A stretch of DNA of 64,000 nucleotides from Legionella drancourtii LLAP12 (GTDB lineage Bacteria; Pseudomonadota; Gammaproteobacteria; Legionellales; Legionellaceae): NCBI RefSeq assembly GCF_000162755.2, contig NZ_JH413829.1:1536-65535 (forward strand). Direction: 5' to 3'. The translations under genes were made by a program, and so were the position numbers. Below the pieces are notes generated by a model, which saw only the letters and a program-made list of their open reading frames with translations, did no database searches and was not told the origin of the DNA. This document shows, one piece after another, positions 1-63,546 of this stretch (the first letter of the stretch is position 1; every line of letters begins with the position of its first letter).

Positions 1-276
1 TTGGATTTCTCGTAAATACTTTACGACACTTGCTGGAGACAATTGGCGGTTTCATTGCACCATAAAAGACAAAGAAGGAAATAAGAAAACTCTTTATCTC
101 AAACGTGCAACGGACACACACATAAGACGTCATATAAAAGTGAAAGCAGAGGCAAATCCATTTGACCCCGTTTCAAAGAGTACTTCAAGGAGCGGGAGAA
201 GAAAATCAGAAAAGCAAATCTGCCAACACACGCTGCAACTGCTGGGCTGAACTCAATCAGCCTTATGAGGGCTTGA
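1..276 (+). pseudogene. Group II intron maturase, C-terminal end, frameshifted
   Basis: The translated strand matches the end of group II intron reverse transcriptase/maturases: a KYFTTLAGDNW-type stretch, then IRRHIKVKAEANPFDP, the conserved tail of the X/endonuclease region. After FDPV the frame is lost: one T appears to be missing near 170, and the expected tail (KEYFKEREKKIRK...) continues in the next frame to a TGA at 274-276. Only the last ~90 codons lie in the window. The maturase would splice and mobilise its own intron; this copy is probably inactive unless the frameshift is an assembly artefact. Confidence 0.75.
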
Positions 277-350
277 GCGATGTGCTGGGAAACTAGCCCG
301 CATCGTTCTTAGAGGGCTGCTCCTCAGTAATGGGGAGTGGCTACTCGACA
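275..350 (+). ncRNA. Group II intron domains V and VI (3' end of intron)
   Basis: Positions 275-308 form a 34-nt hairpin with the length and plan of domain V: GAGCGATG pairs with CATCGTTC (one G-U) below a two-nucleotide bulge and a GAAA-capped distal stem, with the AGC catalytic triad at its base. A second stem at about 309-350 (GCTCCTC...GGGGAG, then CTACTCGAC) fits domain VI and the 3' splice site. The downstream sequence does not look like umuC, so this is not the other half of the intron at 62083. Confidence 0.7.
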
Positions 351-478: not shown

Positions 479-643
479 TTAGCTTTTATTAGCAGATTTC
501 CGTATAAAATCTCGTTTTATCATAGGACCAATACAGTTCCCGCATAGAACATGCATAACTAATTTATTTGATTCTTGATCCACCACCTTATCTTTAAAAA
601 GAGGAAATCTTATCCCACAAGGGTTAATTAAATTGACTAACAA
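479..643 (-). CDS. Small Cys-containing protein of unknown function (54 aa)
   Basis: A 54-codon frame opens at a TTG (643) overlapping the last codons of the DUF932 gene and ends at a TAA just before the operon terminator. It contains NPCGIRF and LCGNCIG, a Cys-x2-Cys arrangement that could bind a metal, and a basic tail (KRDFIRKSANKS). No family is recognised. The overlap with the upstream stop suggests translational coupling. The TTG start is a guess, and the case rests on composition and position only. Confidence 0.4.
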   Translation of the reverse strand: MLVNLINPCGIRFPLFKDKVVDQESNKLVMHVLCGNCIGPMIKRDFIRKSANKS

Positions 644-1428
644 GATAACAGGGTATTCTCAGCAATCGTCCAAAGGTCACGGTTAATTTTAACGTTTTGA
701 TCGATTGATGTGATTTTTCGGCTTCTTGCTCTGCGCCACCGTCCGTGCTCATTCAGTCTGTAGCCTAGAACACCTCCTTTTATTAGGTTCTCCTGGACTA
801 CATTAAACACAGAAAACAAGTCGCGTTTCATGTCTTCACGTCTTCTGGGAACCAAAAGATTTTTTGGCTCAATCACAAGATTGGCATCCTCACTGAAGCG
901 AAGTGCATGTGCTTGTGCTGAAAACTCTAAAAGCTTTTCATCTGGCAGTGCACAATCCCCCATCTGCTCCACAACCTGAAGCATTTTTTGTGATGATTCA
1001 ATCACCCGATAGGTTCCTTCAATGACATTGCCAATTACGTCACCTTGGTGCTTGACTCGAACTTCATCATAGCTTTTCCCAGCCACCAGGCCATTGGTGC
1101 ACACCTGACGATAAAGTCCTGCCATTAAGCGATATGATGACAGCCCGTCATGTGAATTAATCAATACCAGCTCAGGAAAGAGTCCATTGCCAGGATTGTG
1201 ATAGTCTCGATGTCGAAAGCGAACCAGGTGTTTTGAAAATACTTTTTTTTCCTCTGATCTGCTAGCCGATTGCGTGGCTTTAGTCGGATAAAATCCTTCC
1301 TGAAGCAATCTATCGATGACATCCGATGTGGCTATGGGCTGATAACGCTCACTGGTGTGTACGGCAGCTCCTCTGGTAAATAAAGAAGGTGCTGCTTTAT
1401 AAAGTTGTTCTATAGTTAGTACATTCAT
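637..1428 (-). CDS. DUF932-family protein
   Basis: 263 aa starting at MNVLTIEQL; this start is preferred to the one 12 codons upstream because AGGAG lies correctly spaced before it (AGGAGAACCAGCAATG). The body (HLVRFRHRD, FPELVLINSHDG, YRLMAGLYRQVCTNGLVAG, then VIEGTYRVIESS) has the pattern of DUF932, a family common on plasmids, phages and ICEs and often found beside ssb and antirestriction genes. Its biochemical function is not established. It is the penultimate gene of the leftward operon, preceded by the bistable hairpin at 1453-1495. Confidence 0.75.
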   Translation of the reverse strand: MNVLTIEQLYKAAPSLFTRGAAVHTSERYQPIATSDVIDRLLQEGFYPTKATQSASRSEEKKVFSKHLVRFRHRDYHNPGNGLFPELVLINSHDGLSSYRLMAGLYRQVCTNGLVAGKSYDEVRVKHQGDVIGNVIEGTYRVIESSQKMLQVVEQMGDCALPDEKLLEFSAQAHALRFSEDANLVIEPKNLLVPRRREDMKRDLFSVFNVVQENLIKGGVLGYRLNEHGRWRRARSRKITSIDQNVKINRDLWTIAENTLLSC

Positions 1429-1452
1429 TGCTGGTTCTCCTGATTCAATAAG

Positions 1453-1495
1453 AAAAAGGAGCAAGTCCCCTATGGGAGTCTTGCTCCCATAGGGG
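1453..1495 (-). promoter_or_regulatory. Bistable hairpin (attenuator-like) before the DUF932 gene
   Basis: Structure A: a 12-bp perfect stem 1467-1478/1484-1495 (CCCCTATGGGAG with its complement). Structure B: GGAGCAAG 1458-1465 with CTTGCTCC 1480-1487, immediately followed on the leftward transcript by UUUUU (1453-1457). A and B share 1484-1487 and cannot coexist, the geometry of an antiterminator/terminator pair. Structure A begins 11 nt after the upstream stop codon. Confidence 0.6.
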
Positions 1496-1505
1496 TTATT
1501 AATGG

Positions 1506-1730
1506 TTACTTTTTTATATGAAACGTTTTGATTAATCGGTGATGCAATGTATCAATGCATTCCGCGATGAATCCACCGGAGTAGTATTCAAAGGGCTGCC
1601 AAAAATCTATTGCATCGTCATCAGTCCCTAATTCATCATTATTTAACCGATTGATAAGTGTTGAATACTCAATATCGTCGGGAAAATAACTGAGGAAAGT
1701 AGAAGCTGCTGTCAGTTCAAATGGATTCAT
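1506..1730 (-). CDS. Hypothetical protein, 74 aa
   Basis: Small acidic protein (FPDDIEYSTLINRLNNDELGTDDDAIDFWQPF) with a basic C-terminus (LIKTFHIKK). The SD is strong (AAGGAGGACCACTTAAA before ATG). No domain or family recognised, no membrane segment or signal peptide. It lies between ssb and the DUF932 gene in the leftward operon, so a DNA-metabolism or anti-host role is possible but not shown. The regularly placed hairpins before and after support it as a real gene. Confidence 0.6.
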   Translation of the reverse strand: MNPFELTAASTFLSYFPDDIEYSTLINRLNNDELGTDDDAIDFWQPFEYYSGGFIAECIDTLHHRLIKTFHIKK

Positions 1731-1753
1731 TTTAAGTGGTCCTCCTTAAGTTT

Positions 1754-1793
1754 AAAAAAGGAGTTGTTCCCAAAGGGATAACTCCATTCGGGA
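1754..1793 (-). promoter_or_regulatory. Bistable hairpin before the 74-aa gene
   Basis: Structure A: 1768-1778 with 1783-1793 (TCCCAAAGGGA with TCCATTCGGGA; 10 of 11 pairs including one G-U). Structure B: GGAGTT 1760-1765 with AACTCC 1780-1785, followed leftward by six U (1754-1759) and then the SD. The 3' arm of B overlaps A, as in the other junctions of this operon. Confidence 0.55.
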
Positions 1794-1805
1794 TTAATGA
1801 AACAA

Positions 1806-2231
1806 TTAAAAAGGAACTTCTTCACATGCCAACATCGAGTGCATTTGATCTAAATACTCCTCTGCTGTTGGTTTATCAGTCTGTTCAGGTAGCTCTTTGG
1901 GTTTGGCGTTATCAAGCAACTGTATGGTTTGCACCACAATATTGATTGATTGCCGTTTAACACCTTCAGTATCAATCCAGTTATTTGAGCGCAGTTTGCC
2001 CTCAATATAAATCTGACTTCCTTTTTGCAAGCGTTCAACAGCTAAAGCCGCTAATTTCCCAAAAAATACCAGATGATGCCACTCAGTAATGGTTTCCCAT
2101 TCACCATTACGGCGATAGGATTCATTTGTGGCAAGGGAGACTGATGCAACGGGATGATTTTCCTTTGTTTGGGTACTTCTGGGTGAATGACCAACATGTC
2201 CTATTAATTGGATCTTATTTAATACTGCCAT
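1806..2231 (-). CDS. ssb: Single-stranded DNA-binding protein
   Basis: 141 aa. N-terminal OB fold (residues ~1-110): MAVLNKIQLIGHVG, VASVSLATNESY, TEWHHLVFFGKLAALAVERLQKGSQIYIEGKLRSNNW, all diagnostic of SSB. The tail ends in the acidic/hydrophobic tip EEVPF used to recruit partner proteins. It binds and protects ssDNA during replication and after conjugative entry; an ssb is usual in transfer-element leading operons. It is shorter than chromosomal SSB (~170 aa) because the linker is short. SD AAGGAG lies before the start. Confidence 0.95.
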   Translation of the reverse strand: MAVLNKIQLIGHVGHSPRSTQTKENHPVASVSLATNESYRRNGEWETITEWHHLVFFGKLAALAVERLQKGSQIYIEGKLRSNNWIDTEGVKRQSINIVVQTIQLLDNAKPKELPEQTDKPTAEEYLDQMHSMLACEEVPF

Positions 2232-2260
2232 TTTTGTTCTCCTTCAAGTGTCATTAATAA

Positions 2261-2316
2261 TAAAATCGCACAATCGGAGAATTCCCGCACAAGGCAGAAG
2301 TTCTCCGATTGTGCGG
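2261..2316 (-). promoter_or_regulatory. Bistable hairpin before ssb
   Basis: Structure B is a 15-bp perfect stem 2267-2281/2301-2315, followed leftward by UUUUA. Structure A pairs CCGCACAA 2285-2292 with TTGTGCGG 2309-2316, using part of the same strand. Hence the two alternatives exclude each other. The ssb SD lies about 20 nt downstream. Confidence 0.6.
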
Positions 2317-2356
2317 ATTAAAACGGGTAAAATAGCAACAGGTGTAATCCTACTGC

Positions 2357-2566
2357 CTAGACCAACTGGATAGAATGGGTCGTTGCTGCGTTTCTTGCGA
2401 TTATTCCATTCAACGTTCGAGCGCCAATTTGAAGTTGCGCTATATCTTCTACTGATAACTCATGCTGATAGGCATGAAGTTCGGCAATAGAGCGCAATAA
2501 ATCAAAAAAGGCTAAATCGGTTCGAGTGCATTGATTGGTCAATTCGGCAAATGATGGGTGTTGCAT
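2357..2566 (-). CDS. Hypothetical protein, 69 aa
   Basis: Mostly helical small protein (MQHPSFAELTNQCTRTDLAFFDLLRSIAELHAYQHELSVEDIAQLQIGARTL...). No motif, signal peptide or membrane segment, and no family recognised. It is the fourth gene of the leftward operon, with SD AAGGAGAGAACCC before ATG and bistable hairpins on both sides. An operon-linked accessory role with ssb is an inference from position only. Confidence 0.6.
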   Translation of the reverse strand: MQHPSFAELTNQCTRTDLAFFDLLRSIAELHAYQHELSVEDIAQLQIGARTLNGIIARNAATTHSIQLV

Positions 2567-2580
2567 GGGTTCTCTCCTTG

Positions 2581-2631
2581 AATAAAGGGAAATACCCTTG
2601 CCCCATGAGGAAGTGTGATTTCCCCGATGGG
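2581..2631 (-). promoter_or_regulatory. Bistable hairpin before the 69-aa gene
   Basis: Structure A: 2602-2612 with 2620-2631 (CCCAT/ATGGG plus GGAA/TTCC with an internal mismatch). Structure B: GGGAAAT 2587-2593 with ATTTCCC 2618-2624, followed leftward by UUUAUU and the SD. B and A share 2620-2624. Confidence 0.55.
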
Positions 2632-2651
2632 TTACAAACCTTTAAATAGGC

Positions 2652-3017
2652 TTAGTGATTGAAATGAATTAATGCTGAAAGATAAGCGGCTAATGAAAGA
2701 CCAACAGTGATGATTGTACCAATCATCCAGCGTCTTGATGCCAACAACTCACTCCTGTTTTCACGTAGTTGTTCATTGTAGACTTTCATTCGCTCATCGA
2801 ACTCGCGACGTTGTTCAACAAGTTTTTTATCCTGTTCAACAAACACTTGTCTAACGGCTTCACTTAACATGTTATCCACCTCTTCGACACTATAAATGTT
2901 GTGGATTTCTATCTGAGTCAGTGTGGAAAAAAATCCCTCAGATAACTCTTTAGTAAACCCACTCTCTTTAAGAATCTTAGCATATTTTAAAGTATCTGTC
3001 TGAATACGCACAACCAT
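2652..3017 (-). CDS. Coiled-coil protein with C-terminal membrane anchor
   Basis: 121 aa. Residues ~40-95 are charged and heptad-like (VRQVFVEQDKKLVEQRREFDERMKVYNEQLRENRSELL); residues ~97-117 form one hydrophobic segment (WMIGTIITVGLSLAAYLSALI), so the protein is probably tail-anchored in the inner membrane. The plan resembles DUF1640/CCDC90-like bacterial proteins, but the match is one of layout, not of motif. SD CAGGAGAAATGG overlaps the start region. Function unknown. Confidence 0.65.
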   Translation of the reverse strand: MVVRIQTDTLKYAKILKESGFTKELSEGFFSTLTQIEIHNIYSVEEVDNMLSEAVRQVFVEQDKKLVEQRREFDERMKVYNEQLRENRSELLASRRWMIGTIITVGLSLAAYLSALIHFNH

Positions 3018-3025
3018 TTCTCCTG

Positions 3026-3077
3026 TAAAAAACTGGAGAAATAGTCAGCACACGCTGAGTTATTCTCCAGCGTGTGC
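3026..3077 (-). promoter_or_regulatory. Bistable hairpin before the coiled-coil gene
   Basis: Structure A: GCACACGCTG 3048-3057 with CAGCGTGTGC 3068-3077, 10 perfect pairs. Structure B: CTGGAGAAATA 3033-3043 with TATTCTCCAG 3061-3070 (one bulge), followed leftward by UUUUUU. The CAG at 3068-3070 is used by both. Confidence 0.6.
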
Positions 3078-3170
3078 ACCAACATTATTCACCCTAAAAT
3101 AAAAGGCTCCTGACAGCACATGTCTGTCAGGGTAAGTTGGTAAATTAGGCCATTTCTGGCCTACATTAAT

Positions 3171-3665
3171 TTAATAAACCAAGCAATTAGTACAGCGTGT
3201 TTTGCCTGACATATTGAGACTCATAGCCATTTGTAACGCACCAACATCAACACCACATTCATCACATGAATCCTTAAAAAACTCCATGTCTTCTGAATAG
3301 TCGCATCGATCTTTAATAAGAATCACTTCATCTTCGGAAAAACTCAGGCATTCAAAGAGGTCACGGAGTGTTTCTTGTTTCCTCTCTTCGTATAGTTCAT
3401 ATACCTGACCCGATCCGTATGAGTGTTGACCTATTTTATTGATGATTAACTCGATAAAATTAGTTCTTATTTCTTGATCCGTCACATCAGGAGATGAATG
3501 ACATTTTTTGTTACTATACTCGTGTAATTCATGGGCGTTGACTTCTATCCAAGCCCCAATCCAGTAACTTTCATTTAACTGGGGATGAAGAAAGAATGTC
3601 GCTAGACAATCAGCATAGCGAGATATCCCATGATTACTAGAGGGTGATTTATTTATAGAGTACAT
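3171..3665 (-). CDS. Hypothetical protein with C-terminal Cys4 motif
   Basis: 164 aa, first gene of the leftward operon, with SD AAGGAGAAATAAT before ATG. The C-terminus holds CDEC and, 20 residues later, CTNC, a likely zinc ribbon. The N-terminal and central parts are acidic and helical (RDLFECLSFSEDEVILIKDRCDYSEDMEF). No family recognised. The zinc motif and company with ssb suggest a nucleic-acid-related role, as inference only. The structured leader at 3934-4040 lies ~270 nt upstream of the start. Confidence 0.6.
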   Translation of the reverse strand: MYSINKSPSSNHGISRYADCLATFFLHPQLNESYWIGAWIEVNAHELHEYSNKKCHSSPDVTDQEIRTNFIELIINKIGQHSYGSGQVYELYEERKQETLRDLFECLSFSEDEVILIKDRCDYSEDMEFFKDSCDECGVDVGALQMAMSLNMSGKTRCTNCLVY

Positions 3666-3680
3666 ATTATTTCTCCTTTT

Positions 3681-3728
3681 AAAAACAGGAAATAATATTG
3701 CCCCAAAGGGTATACTTTCCCTGTGGGC
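3681..3728 (-). promoter_or_regulatory. Bistable hairpin before the first gene of the leftward operon
   Basis: Structure A: GCCCCAAAGGG 3700-3710 with CCCTGTGGGC 3719-3728 (near complete). Structure B: CAGGAAA 3686-3692 with TTTCCCTG 3716-3723 (one bulged base), followed leftward by UUUUU and then AAGGAG. Same order and overlap as the five internal junctions. Confidence 0.55.
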
Positions 3729-3933
3729 TCTATCACCTTCTTTTAAACAATGGTTGAATAACCCAAATTGTTAAAGAATACATTCTTAAAATGGGTTTGT
3801 CTGATAGGTATCAGGCAATGAATTCAAACGAGTTTAAAACAAGGTTAATTGCTTTAATGAAATAAAAACAAAGGCATAAACCTCTATTCTTTATAAAGGA
3901 TTCAATACTTGTATATTGAATTAAGGTACATCA

Positions 3934-4040
3934 GGTTCCCGACTATACGTTCCGCTGCAGTGATTGGGGAATTAGGGTAGCAAATCACAAGACCATTTAT
4001 TTCGGTTTCACCAGGCTTTCACTGGTTCATCAGTTGTGTT
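3934..4040 (-). ncRNA. Structured 107-nt leader RNA, copy A
   Basis: Shares ~87% identity over exactly 107 nt with 10107-10213. On the leftward strand it can form CACAA/UUGUG enclosing two hairpins (ACCAG/CUGGU and ACC/GGU), then a GCUAC.../...GYAGC hairpin whose loop UUCCC can pair with a downstream GGGAA (pseudoknot). Most differences between the copies fall in loops. Both copies sit upstream of leftward operons, here the one with ssb and DUF932. Those gene associations recall the STAXI and radC RNA motifs; this needs a covariance-model search. Confidence 0.6.
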
Positions 4041-8554: not shown

Positions 8555-9425
8555 GACAATAGTTCCAAATGGTGCTGGCAGCGGTAATGCTCATTTCTTC
8601 TTTAATCCTAAGAACCTTTTCTTTTGGAATTAAATGAGTCAATTCATTGAGTCGTCCCTGAGCATAGAGATAACGGTATTGAACTCTCGTTGAAAGACCA
8701 ATTGCGGTGAGGCCGTATTGATAGGCCAATCTGATGTAGGATTCATCCATTTGTTTTAGCCAGGACTCAGAGGGTTTTAATAGTTGCATGATTAATAGGA
8801 TGAGTTCTCTTTGAATTTGAGATTGAATTGGAACTATCCTGTCTTTACTATTGCTACTAATATCTCGGGTAACCCAAAGTTCATTCTCTGTAATATGAAC
8901 ATCTGGAGTAAGCTTTATGGCTTCACTGATGGTGAGCCCAAAATAGCTTTGTAGGCCAAATAAAATTTTGGCGATTGGATTTTGTAATTCGTTCAATATC
9001 TTGTCGCGATCTACTCGTGGTTTTGAGGTATTGTGTGATTTTGTTAAACCAAGTGATTTATTGTCTATGTGTTCGATGGGGTGATTTAACATATTAAAAA
9101 AAGAGCGTAGGCAAATGAGATAGTTCATTATGGTCGGACTTTTAAGCCCATTATCTTGCCAATGAATAACCAGTTGTCTCACATGATTGGCCGTAACGGC
9201 ATACCAAGTTGGTGGTACACAGCGCAGACAATAAAAATCTTCAATGGTTTTTATCAAGACAAAACGCCGTAATTGACGTTGCTTGTAAGAGCCTTGATTG
9301 TTGTAATCCAAATACTGGTTAATGGATTTGATTAAGGTGTTTTTTCTGCTCATAGTCTTCAGTTGGTTAATTATCGTTACTACGTTTACCCTGGATTTTA
9401 GTTTAGTGTTATTCGAGCGGCTCAT
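8547..9425 (-). CDS. Integrase-domain protein paralogue, degenerate catalytic set
   Basis: About 292 aa from MSRSNN (an upstream in-frame start would add 8 residues). It shares the N-terminal plan of its neighbour (TANHVRQLVIHWQDNGLKSPTIMNYLICLRSFFNML) and the LFGLQSYFGLTISEAIKLTP helix, but no clear His-x2-Arg box or terminal Tyr is visible: the C-terminal region reads LSTRVQYRYLYAQGRLNELTHL and ends AASTIWNYCHE. It is probably a non-catalytic partner of the downstream integrase. It is the second gene of the operon preceded by leader copy B. Confidence 0.7.
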   Translation of the reverse strand: MSRSNNTKLKSRVNVVTIINQLKTMSRKNTLIKSINQYLDYNNQGSYKQRQLRRFVLIKTIEDFYCLRCVPPTWYAVTANHVRQLVIHWQDNGLKSPTIMNYLICLRSFFNMLNHPIEHIDNKSLGLTKSHNTSKPRVDRDKILNELQNPIAKILFGLQSYFGLTISEAIKLTPDVHITENELWVTRDISSNSKDRIVPIQSQIQRELILLIMQLLKPSESWLKQMDESYIRLAYQYGLTAIGLSTRVQYRYLYAQGRLNELTHLIPKEKVLRIKEEMSITAASTIWNYCHE

Positions 9426-9556
9426 ATAAATGATGCCTGGACAGACCACAAGGCTCGATTCGGGGGTAAACCCGTAGTTGTTTCTAAGGTCGGTACATCA
9501 GTTTTTTTAGTTAAGTCTCCTTTTGATTATCTATAATTGCAGTTCAATTTTTAAAA

Positions 9557-10106: not shown

Positions 10107-10213
10107 GGTTCCCGACTAAGCGTTCAGCTACAGTGATTGGGGAATTAGGGTAGCAATTCACAAGACCGAATGTTCTGGTTTCACCAGGATTGCACTGGTT
10201 CGTCAGTTGTGTT
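10107..10213 (-). ncRNA. Structured 107-nt leader RNA, copy B
   Basis: Homologue of 3934-4040. Here the GCUAC/GUAGC stem is perfect, and the loop UUCCC to GGGAA pseudoknot and the CACAA/UUGUG junction with two inner hairpins are retained. It lies upstream of the operon with two XerC/D-like integrase proteins. Presence of the same leader before an ssb operon and an integrase operon suggests a shared cis-acting control. Confidence 0.6.
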
Positions 10214-62082: not shown

Positions 62083-63546
62083 GTGCGACGTGAAAAGTCG
62101 TCTAACGGACTGTTTTAGACAAAAGGACTTGGATAAAACCAACTGTTCCACCGGTTGTACCCTAGGGAGTGGTGCGGTGAGGTAACAAGCCGTATAGAGC
62201 CTCCTGACAATGTACCGAAACCCAATTTATCTGTGAAGAGCGATTGGTACTGGCAGCATCAAGCTGGTAGAGGGCTAGGGTTTGGGTGGTATGGCTAATG
62301 TAAGTGAACTTCTAATAAACGCCGTTATGCAGAACAAGCCAAAGATGCTGATAGGCTTGAACCAAAAGGTTTGTGAGAGGAACTGGGGCTGAATATTTCC
62401 CCTGTCGTGGACATGATCTCACCGGTGAAAAGGAAGAGCCTACCCCACTAATGCGGTTAGACGAAACACGGTAAGCCCGTAGCGCTCCTGAAACAGGTAT
62501 GTTTGATGTAAATCAAACGGACGGTACTGCGGGTAAAGGAGGACGGAGAAAGCGAAGGCCAGGCTGTAATGGTTTGGATACTGATGATATCAGGCATGAA
62601 AATGAGCCCACTTCCGTCTGGTTCTGTATCACGAGAAACTTGACAAAACGGTGAAGGAGACAAAGCAGATGACAGAAAAAGCAAGTGCTTTAAATGGTGC
62701 AGTCTCCACTGTAGCTGAATGGCATCAAATTGATTGGCAAACAGTAAATACTACGGTAAAGCGTCATCAAGCCCGTATCGTGAAGGCCGTACAAGAAAAG
62801 AGATGGGGTAAAGTAAAGTCTTTACAACGTCTTTTGACTCGCTCGTTCAGTGCTAAAGCTTTAGCCATAAGACGAGTGACAGAGAATAAGGGGAAACGTA
62901 CTAGCGGTGTTGATGGTCAATTATGGGAAACACCTCAGCGCAAAGGAAAAGCACTTTTTGAATTAAAAACCTATGGATACAAACCACAACCACTGAAGCG
63001 CATCTTTATCCCTAAAAATAATGGGAAACTGCGTCCGTTAAGCATTCCTACCATGAAAGATAGGGCGATGCAGGCATTATACCTCTTGGCTCTTGAACCA
63101 GTTTCTGAAACCATTGGAGACATCAACTCCTATGGATTTAGAAAAGAACGTGCGACAAGTGATGCAATCGAACAATGCTTTGGGGTTTTGGCAAAGAAAT
63201 CCAGTCCTGAATGGGTTTTGGAAGCAGATATTGAAGCGTGCTTTGATAAGATAAGTCATGAGTGGTTTGAATCAAACCCTTTCGGTTCCAACGAGTTCTG
63301 AGAAAGTGGTTGAACACAGGGTTTATATCAAAAGGGGTCTTTTTCTCCACTACCGAAGGTACGCCGCAAGGTGGCATTCTCTCACCAACATTAGCCAATA
63401 TGGCATTGGACGGATTAGAAAACAAACTTAAATCGCTCTATCCCAGAACTTACAAACAACCTTATCGGGGAGTAGCATCGAAAGTTCATTTAATCCGTTA
63501 TGCTGATGATTTTATCATCACAGCTAAAACACGAGAGATGCTGGAA
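62083..63546 (+). mobile_element. Group II intron, 5' part, inserted in umuC and truncated by Tn3
   Basis: Begins GTGCGACG, the bacterial group II intron 5' consensus, followed by ~580 nt of ribozyme sequence and a maturase gene. The element is cut at 63546/63547 by a Tn3-family terminal repeat; domains V-VI would lie beyond that transposon. Confidence 0.85.
62669..63546 (+). pseudogene. Group II intron reverse transcriptase/maturase, frameshifted and truncated
   Basis: Start MTEKAS with AGGAG spaced before it. RT motifs: KRIFIPKNNGKLRPLSIPTMKDRAMQALYLLALEP, GFRKERATSDAIEQC, EADIEACFDKISHEW, then a frameshift near 63270-63285 (a stop at 63299), and continuing in another frame VLRKWLNTGFISKG, EGTPQGGILSPTLANMALDGLE and IRYADDFIIT (catalytic YADD). 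Cut by Tn3 after TREMLE. Inactive. Confidence 0.85.

What the first reader, a model, noticed from the sequence alone, without database searches (positions are those of the whole stretch)
1453..3728. Six consecutive mutually exclusive hairpin pairs, one in front of each gene of the ssb operon
Seen directly: all six leaders/junctions (1453-1495, 1754-1793, 2261-2316, 2581-2631, 3026-3077, 3681-3728) carry an upstream stem A and an overlapping stem B that ends in a U-run just before the SD. The arm sequences differ at every junction, but the arrangement is the same, which suggests selection on structure. This is the geometry of serial transcription attenuators, or of structures exposing and hiding each SD. 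A gene-by-gene attenuator series in one operon is not something I know for ICEs.
Basis: seen in the sequence. Interest (0 to 1): 0.85.

Follow-up and report, generated by a model that had tools for sequence, protein, structure and literature searches.

The report
Serial RNA switches hiding ribosome-binding sites
In a Legionella mobile element, each of six genes in a row is preceded by its own RNA fold with two exclusive shapes, one of which appears to hide the ribosome-binding site; relatives carry the same arrangement, so it looks like a repeated on/off switch for translation, though nobody has tested it.

Summary
All six leaders carry two mutually exclusive stems at the stated coordinates (minus strand). 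A third helix was missed: the 3' arm of stem B (b') is complementary to the Shine-Dalgarno (SD) and can hide it (helix C). A, B and C together exceed dinucleotide shuffles (0-15 of 300 reach the score). In five of six leaders A+C is the minimum-energy fold; in the ssb leader B wins and the SD is nearly free.
The architecture recurs with other sequences in Legionellaceae mobile elements: window-type operons, and 64-aa/ssb/ardA operons (64-aa gene in 51 of 143 genomes). A and C covary in ardA leaders, A and B in ssb leaders, on most but not all measures. The U-rich tail after B is kept in 36 of 45 window-type leaders, but only 7 of 55 ardA and 10 of 45 ssbB leaders.
So serial transcription attenuators are not the common mechanism; a three-helix translational switch fits better. 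The trigger is unknown. Both operon types are headed by a hammerhead ribozyme core (11 of 11 and 54 of 70). The window's leaders match no Rfam family at gathering score. Function is inferred, not shown.

The parts
3672..3728 (-). Leader J6 of the 164-aa gene: a 3719-3728, b 3716-3724, a' 3700-3710, b' 3685-3692, SD 3672-3678
   Evidence: coordinates
3014..3077 (-). Leader J5 of the 121-aa gene: a 3068-3077, b 3061-3070, a' 3048-3057, b' 3033-3043, SD side of helix C 3014-3024 (runs into the start codon)
2573..2631 (-). Leader J4 of the 69-aa gene: a 2620-2631, b 2618-2624, a' 2602-2612, b' 2587-2593, SD 2573-2579
2237..2316 (-). Leader J3 of ssb: a 2309-2316, b 2301-2315, a' 2285-2292, b' 2267-2281, SD 2237-2244; B is the stable state here
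1741..1793 (-). Leader J2 of the 74-aa gene: a 1783-1793, b 1780-1785, a' 1768-1778, b' 1758-1765, SD 1741-1748
1435..1495 (-). Leader J1 of the DUF932 gene: a 1484-1495, b 1480-1488, a' 1467-1478, b' 1457-1465, SD 1435-1442
3171..3665 (-). 164-aa gene, no Pfam family
2652..3017 (-). 121-aa gene, possibly coiled coil
   Evidence: CCDC90-like, below its cut-off
2357..2566 (-). 69-aa gene
1806..2231 (-). ssb, single-strand DNA-binding protein
   Evidence: PF00436 E 4.3e-28
1506..1730 (-). 74-aa gene
637..1428 (-). DUF932 gene
   Evidence: PF06067 E 1.7e-35
3986..4038 (-). Type I hammerhead ribozyme core upstream of the operon
   Evidence: Rfam does not report it here
3917..3977 (-). RAGATH-32-like motif (below Rfam gathering score)
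   Evidence: 16.1 bits against 41.8 for 3917-3958; 3934-3977 by motif
3752..3778 (-). boxA-like stretch followed by a short hairpin, before the first leader
   Evidence: alignment; the name boxA is recalled

Best explanation
Each leader is a three-helix translational switch in the mRNA. Segment order is a, b, a', b', SD, start codon. Helix A (a:a') locks b away; b' is then free to pair with the SD (helix C), sometimes including the start region, and translation is off. If A opens, b pairs with b' (helix B), which takes b' off the SD and turns translation on. In the window A and B are close in energy in the 121-aa and 74-aa leaders, and the default fold is off for five genes and on for ssb. Shown: the helices, their exclusivity, their recurrence, and covariation of A and C (ardA leaders) and of A and B (ssb leaders). 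Inferred: that A+C means off and B means on in the cell. Unknown: what opens A. Where b lies 12-20 nt behind the upstream stop codon (46 of 47 ssb-ardA junctions, and the window's 74-aa and DUF932 junctions) a ribosome finishing the upstream gene could cover part of a and leave b free; this cannot serve the first gene of the operon.
For: Minimum-energy folds: A+C in 5 of 6, B in ssb. SD-opening free energy 5.6, 11.1, 7.9, 0.4 (ssb), 7.8, 7.2 kcal/mol against median 2.2, mean 2.95 in 46 control frames; ardA leaders mean 6.7 (n=58), 64-aa leaders 4.8 (n=59), ssbB leaders 2.5 (n=47). Fifteen genes of recombinase operons (1 in the window, 14 in five related loci): 0.1-4.7. DUF932 genes outside such operons: start assigned in 21 of 24 loci, score mean -19.8 with 2 of 21 at -30 or better, SD opening mean 2.4, maximum 4.0. 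Partner-swap test: ardA A and C, ssb A and B, each 0 of 5000 permutations as strong; 64-aa A 22 and C 141 of 5000. Pair counts: ardA A 92.5% paired with 28 double-change cells, ardA C 87.1% with 9, ssb A 98.6% with 7, ssb B 97.4% with 7; shuffles reaching these cell counts 0, 1, 0, 0 of 500. G-U cells 130 against A-C cells 41 over the five helices, which points to RNA of the mRNA strand.
Against: No expression or probing data. By the two count measures that relatedness inflates least, the excess is weak: pairs with a double change are reached by 327 (ardA A), 57 (ardA C), 69 (ssb A) and 51 (ssb B) of 500 shuffles, further pair types by 439, 10, 1 and 51. B does not covary above shuffles in ardA leaders (135 of 500; 690 of 5000) or 64-aa leaders (2225 of 5000), and C does not in ssb leaders (1689 of 5000). 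Opening by the upstream ribosome has no constant spacing: 14-78 nt when the 64-aa gene lies upstream of ardA (n=16), median 23 nt before ssbB (n=48). Some leaders score poorly: 55-aa leaders reach -30 in 1 of 3, the 74-aa leader of L047 is -17.0, one ardA (L077) and one ssb leader (L090) score 0. Six of 46 control frames reach 5.6 kcal/mol in SD opening, four reach 7.2.
Confidence: 0.6

Rival explanations
1. Serial transcription attenuators: B plus U-run is an intrinsic terminator in front of every gene, and A is the antiterminator.
For: U-rich tail at all six window junctions and in 36 of 45 window-type leaders; A and B are exclusive and near equal in energy in the 121-aa and 74-aa leaders.
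Against: Tail lost while b:b' is kept, e.g. the 69-aa leaders of L008 and L009; only 7 of 55 ardA, 18 of 57 64-aa and 10 of 45 ssbB leaders have 5 or more T in 8, and a run of 4 or more T is in 4, 9 and 15 of them. In the readthrough state (A) the SD would still be hidden by C.
Confidence: 0.17
2. Plain SD-hiding hairpins (C) for translational coupling or against read-through expression, with A and B incidental or only spacing devices.
For: C has the clearest effect on SD opening; coupling by unfolding of an SD-hiding structure is known (PMC12548453, passages read).
Against: A is strong and covaries in ardA and ssb leaders, B covaries in ssb leaders; the first leader has no upstream gene; stop-to-b spacing varies.
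Confidence: 0.13
3. Structures act as single-stranded DNA, for instance as Frpo-like promoters or protein sites in the leading region during transfer.
For: ssb and anti-restriction genes are of the kind found in leading regions, and Frpo-like promoters lie before SSB genes there (PMC11541004, passages read).
Against: G-U cells outnumber A-C cells 130 to 41; one sigma-70-like hit overlaps one of six junctions, and the region has fewer hits than shuffles (12 against 26.2); helix C involves the SD.
Confidence: 0.05
4. By-products: quasi-palindromic hairpins left where gene cassettes were inserted or lost, without function.
For: Gene gain and loss breaks at the leaders: the 164-aa unit is absent from several relatives and a 55-aa unit present, with alignment ends at about 3733, 3073 and 1502-1524.
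Against: Covariation and retention with diverged sequence over dozens of elements.
Confidence: 0.05

Closest known systems
erm-type translational attenuators (recalled)
   Same: Alternative helices hide or free the SD of the next gene; the ribosome is a possible sensor.
   Different: No constant leader peptide seen; the segment order is a-b-a'-b'-SD with B enclosing a'; repeated before every gene of one operon.
Translational coupling by RNA unfolding, e.g. rpmI-rplT and MS2 coat-lysis (review PMC12548453, passages)
   Same: SD hidden in structure that upstream translation may open.
   Different: Here two extra exclusive helices bear on the hiding helix; the first gene has it too; spacing is not constant.
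Intrinsic-terminator attenuators (recalled)
   Same: Two exclusive stems; in the window B ends in a U-rich tail.
   Different: Tail not conserved in relatives, and b' pairs with the SD.
Frpo/ssi single-strand promoters of leading regions (PMC11541004, passages)
   Same: Folded sequences before ssb-type leading genes.
   Different: RNA-type wobble pattern; no promoter-like hit in five of six junctions.
RAGATH-32 and hammerhead ribozymes (Rfam RF02922; RF02275)
   Same: Like motifs lie upstream of these operons.
   Different: They are separate elements at the head, not the leaders.

Membership tests
Intrinsic-terminator transcription attenuator | Two mutually exclusive stems | tested here: met
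Intrinsic-terminator transcription attenuator | Terminator stem followed by a U-run, kept in relatives | tested here: not met
   36 of 45 window-type, but 7 of 55 ardA, 18 of 57 64-aa, 10 of 45 ssbB
Intrinsic-terminator transcription attenuator | RNA 3' ends at the U-run | not testable with these tools
   no RNA data held
Translational SD-sequestering switch | SD pairs with an upstream anti-SD in the default fold | tested here: met
   5 of 6 leaders 5.6-11.1 kcal/mol; the ssb leader (0.4) is the exception
Translational SD-sequestering switch | An alternative helix takes up the anti-SD | tested here: met
   helix B; covaries in ssb leaders, not above shuffles in ardA
Translational SD-sequestering switch | Translation changes with the fold | not testable with these tools
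   needs bench work (referred)
Riboswitch (metabolite) | Conserved aptamer sequence | tested here: not met
   arm and loop sequences differ between junctions; no Rfam match in the window's leaders at gathering score
erm-type attenuator | Leader peptide ORF before the switch | tested here: inconclusive
   no constant mini-ORF before the 64-aa leaders by eye (T-run length and ATG vary); not searched systematically
Frpo-like ssDNA promoter | -35/-10 in the folded stem | tested here: not met
   one sigma-70-like hit (1756-1729) overlaps one of six junctions
Hammerhead ribozyme (upstream element) | CUGANGA and GAAA core with stems I, II, III and NUH (motif recalled) | tested here: met
   11 of 11 window-type heads and 54 of 70 64-aa-type loci; cleavage not testable here
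RAGATH-32 (upstream element) | Rfam gathering score | tested here: not met
   16.1 against 41.8 bits in the window

The most novel reading that the evidence does not exclude
The leaders form one shared entry programme: a hammerhead-processed polycistronic mRNA of the transfer-entry (ssb, anti-restriction) genes in which every gene carries its own bistable SD switch of unrelated sequence but common logic. The switches would be thrown together by a state of the new host cell, such as free single-strand-binding protein or ribosome traffic, with ssb on by default and the rest off until triggered.
Probability: 0.12. Interest if true: 0.88.

Novelty: new variant of a known kind. Interest (0 to 1): 0.62.

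Why it matters
If true, it shows a gene-by-gene translational control layer in mobile-element operons of entry-type genes, kept by structure while sequence drifts. Its 64-aa marker gene is in 51 of 143 genomes of the family, and leaders were read from dozens of such loci. It makes the control of leading-region genes outside F-like plasmids testable, and gives a natural set of many bistable RNA switches with one design. The tie to a hammerhead core and a RAGATH-32-like motif gives those RNAs an operon context.

Tried and rejected
Rfam on the junctions: no family at gathering score; the 28.6-bit Spy392987 hit at J1 is below its cut-off of 47 and was not pursued. Per-helix shuffles were weak because the choice of b' was unstable; replaced by the joint score. 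DUF932 genes elsewhere: a first look set the start too far downstream in many of the 19 non-Legionella or viral-contig loci, so it was repeated with starts reassigned (21 of 24 assigned). Universal opening by the upstream ribosome: rejected as sole trigger because spacing varies and the first gene has the leader. A leader peptide before the 64-aa gene: not constant by eye. Frpo-like promoters: disfavoured. CsrA-type GGA loops were considered and not tested. The comparison of A and B before the SD is made is informative only for the 121-aa, ssb and 74-aa leaders; in the others the forced structure was not B. Spread beyond Legionellaceae: the head sequence of L060 matched 3 of 369 genomes of the class sample, G001, G092 and G126, all of them also in the family search; the sample is a part of the class. 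Papers: searches are search listings only; passages were read of PMC12548453 and PMC11541004. No title or abstract start in these eight listings describes such leaders; most subscription papers are not held. No protein structure was predicted.
Full report
Setting. The window is a Legionella-type integrative element: by reading of the frames, a conjugation gene set and tandem tyrosine recombinases, and on the minus strand at 637-3735 six genes: 164 aa, 121 aa, 69 aa, ssb, 74 aa and DUF932. No whole genome is held for it. The closest relative found is on a Legionella waltersii contig, 90% identical in DUF932.

Observation. The minimum-energy fold is A plus this helix C in five leaders and B in the ssb leader. 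A joint score for A, B and C in exclusive geometry gives -32.4 to -58.4; 2, 0, 15, 6, 4 and 0 of 300 shuffles per leader reach it, and 46 control frames average -20.7 with a best of -37.5. With 92-nt leaders the six score -33.9 to -56.3, the controls average -22.5 with a best of -39.4, and 8 of 46 controls reach -30. Single-helix tests are weaker: p<=0.05 for A in 4, B in 2 and C in 2 of 6.

SD hiding. The free energy to open the SD core is 5.6, 11.1, 7.9, 0.4, 7.8 and 7.2 kcal/mol, ssb being the 0.4, against a median of 2.2 in 46 controls, whose maximum is 10.8; 6 of 46 controls reach 5.6. Recombinase-operon genes, 1 in the window and 14 in five related loci, lie at 0.1-4.7.

Relatives, window type. 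The same arrangement with changed arms is seen by eye in most of their junctions. By score, 43 of 46 leaders from nine loci, the window included, reach -30, and 35 of 46 reach -37.5 (of 46 controls at that length 8 and 1 do). L010-L012 and L050 were left out as near copies; the 121-aa leaders of L007, L008 and L047, the 55-aa leader of L047, the 57-aa frame of L005 and the genes downstream of DUF932 were not scored. The weak ones are two of three 55-aa leaders and the 74-aa leader of L047. Genes come and go as units with their leaders: the 164-aa unit is missing and a 55-aa unit present in several relatives.

Relatives, ardA type. RAGATH-32 hits in three genomes led to other elements with operons of a 64-aa gene, ssb and an ArdA-like 168-aa gene (the name ArdA is recalled; no family search was run on it), with such leaders by eye. 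The 64-aa gene is in 51 of 143 genomes of the family at E<=0.001, a few marginal, and the ssb at E<=1e-25 in 48 of 143, which includes the window type. From the 72 loci examined (some are the same place fetched twice) I extracted 67 ardA, 66 64-aa and 56 ssb leaders. Dropped as misplaced: L087 and L133 for ardA, L158 for ssb; identical sequences were counted once. By score, 43 of 58 ardA, 35 of 57 64-aa and 45 of 47 ssb leaders reach -30; 35, 8 and 45 reach -37.5. The 64-aa leaders are thus the least distinct.

Contrast. DUF932 genes outside such operons, 24 loci, had an assignable start in 21: score mean -19.8, 2 of 21 at -30 or better, SD opening at most 4.0.

Covariation. Swapping partners between leaders weakens A and C in ardA (n=55, L148-L150 left out as too diverged) and A and B in ssb (n=45, L138 and L154 left out): 0 of 5000 permutations each. 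It weakens A and C of the 64-aa leaders less clearly (n=57; 22 and 141 of 5000). It gives no support for B in ardA (690), B in 64-aa (2225) or C in ssb (1689). Pair counting on alignments A1 (53 ardA leaders) and A2 (45 ssb leaders): ardA A 92.5% paired with 28 double-change cells (0 of 500 shuffles), ardA C 87.1% with 9 (1 of 500), ssb A 98.6% with 7 (0 of 500), ssb B 97.4% with 7 (0 of 500). On numbers of pairs with a double change the shuffles reach 327, 57, 69 and 51 of 500, and on further pair types 439, 10, 1 and 51, so by these stricter counts only ardA C and ssb A stand out on pair types. ardA B is 87.7% paired without excess. The shuffles do not remove relatedness. Over the five helices G-U cells number 130 and A-C cells 41, as expected if the structure acts in the mRNA strand.

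U-runs. Five or more T in the 8 nt after B: 36 of 45 window-type leaders (B ends set by hand, 55-aa leaders not included), 7 of 55 ardA, 18 of 57 64-aa and 10 of 45 ssbB leaders; a run of 4 or more T is in 4, 9 and 15 of the last three. In the 69-aa leaders of L008 and L009 the tail is lost while b:b' is intact. A terminator is therefore not the common function. It may exist in the window's family. A U-rich stretch before an SD could also help ribosome binding (recalled, not tested).

Trigger. Stop to b is 12-19 nt in 46 of 47 ssb-ardA junctions, and 17 and 20 nt at the window's DUF932 and 74-aa junctions, which would let a finishing ribosome cover part of a. But it is 14-78 nt in 16 junctions where the 64-aa gene precedes ardA, and a median of 23 nt before ssbB (n=48). 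The first genes have no gene before them. The trigger stays open.

Head of the operon. All 11 window-type heads tested, from 10 loci, carry a type I hammerhead core, with compensatory stem changes by eye, and 54 of 70 64-aa-type loci do by a strict rule; two of the 16 misses, L061 and L063, look like near matches by eye. Rfam does not report the window's copy; one relative gives 23.8 bits to HH9, below its cut-off of 52. A RAGATH-32-like motif follows (16.1 bits against 41.8 in the window; hits of 75-106 bits elsewhere in three genomes of the family).

Conclusion. The finding is real and wider than stated. The best reading is a repeated three-helix translational switch, with ssb as the gene that is open by default. 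What is shown is anatomy and covariation; that it regulates translation is inferred.

Noticed in passing
window 3986-4038, minus strand: Type I hammerhead ribozyme core upstream of the operon, not reported by Rfam here; conserved with compensatory stem changes in relatives.
   Followed up: yes
window 10107-10211, minus strand: A second hammerhead core followed by a nearly identical RAGATH-32-like motif, heading the 78-aa and recombinase genes; the SD of the 78-aa gene opens at 2.0 kcal/mol.
   Followed up: partly
window 9384-9475, minus strand: RAGATH-13 RNA above Rfam's gathering score, overlapping the 5' end of a recombinase frame as listed.
   Followed up: no
window 3752-3778, minus strand; L005 about 3060-3080: boxA-like stretch (name recalled) before the first leader, suggesting possible Nus-factor antitermination; weaker in the ardA-type elements by eye.
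   Followed up: no
window 3073-3733 and around 1502-1524: Gene units with their leaders are gained or lost at the leader boundary (164-aa and 55-aa units).
   Followed up: partly
64-aa-type heads, e.g. L060 4428-4446: A short hairpin of changing sequence lies just before the first leader and seems to covary by eye.
   Followed up: no
ssb leaders, loop before a': A CUGC stretch is nearly invariant in the loop of helix A of ssb leaders, the window's included, but absent in L005 and L013.
   Followed up: no
window 273-349 and 62139-62275, plus strand: Two group II intron matches near the window ends.
   Followed up: no
L045 before 739 and before 1736: One element has two hammerhead heads, before the 164-aa and before the 121-aa gene, as if the 164-aa unit brought its own head.
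   Followed up: partly
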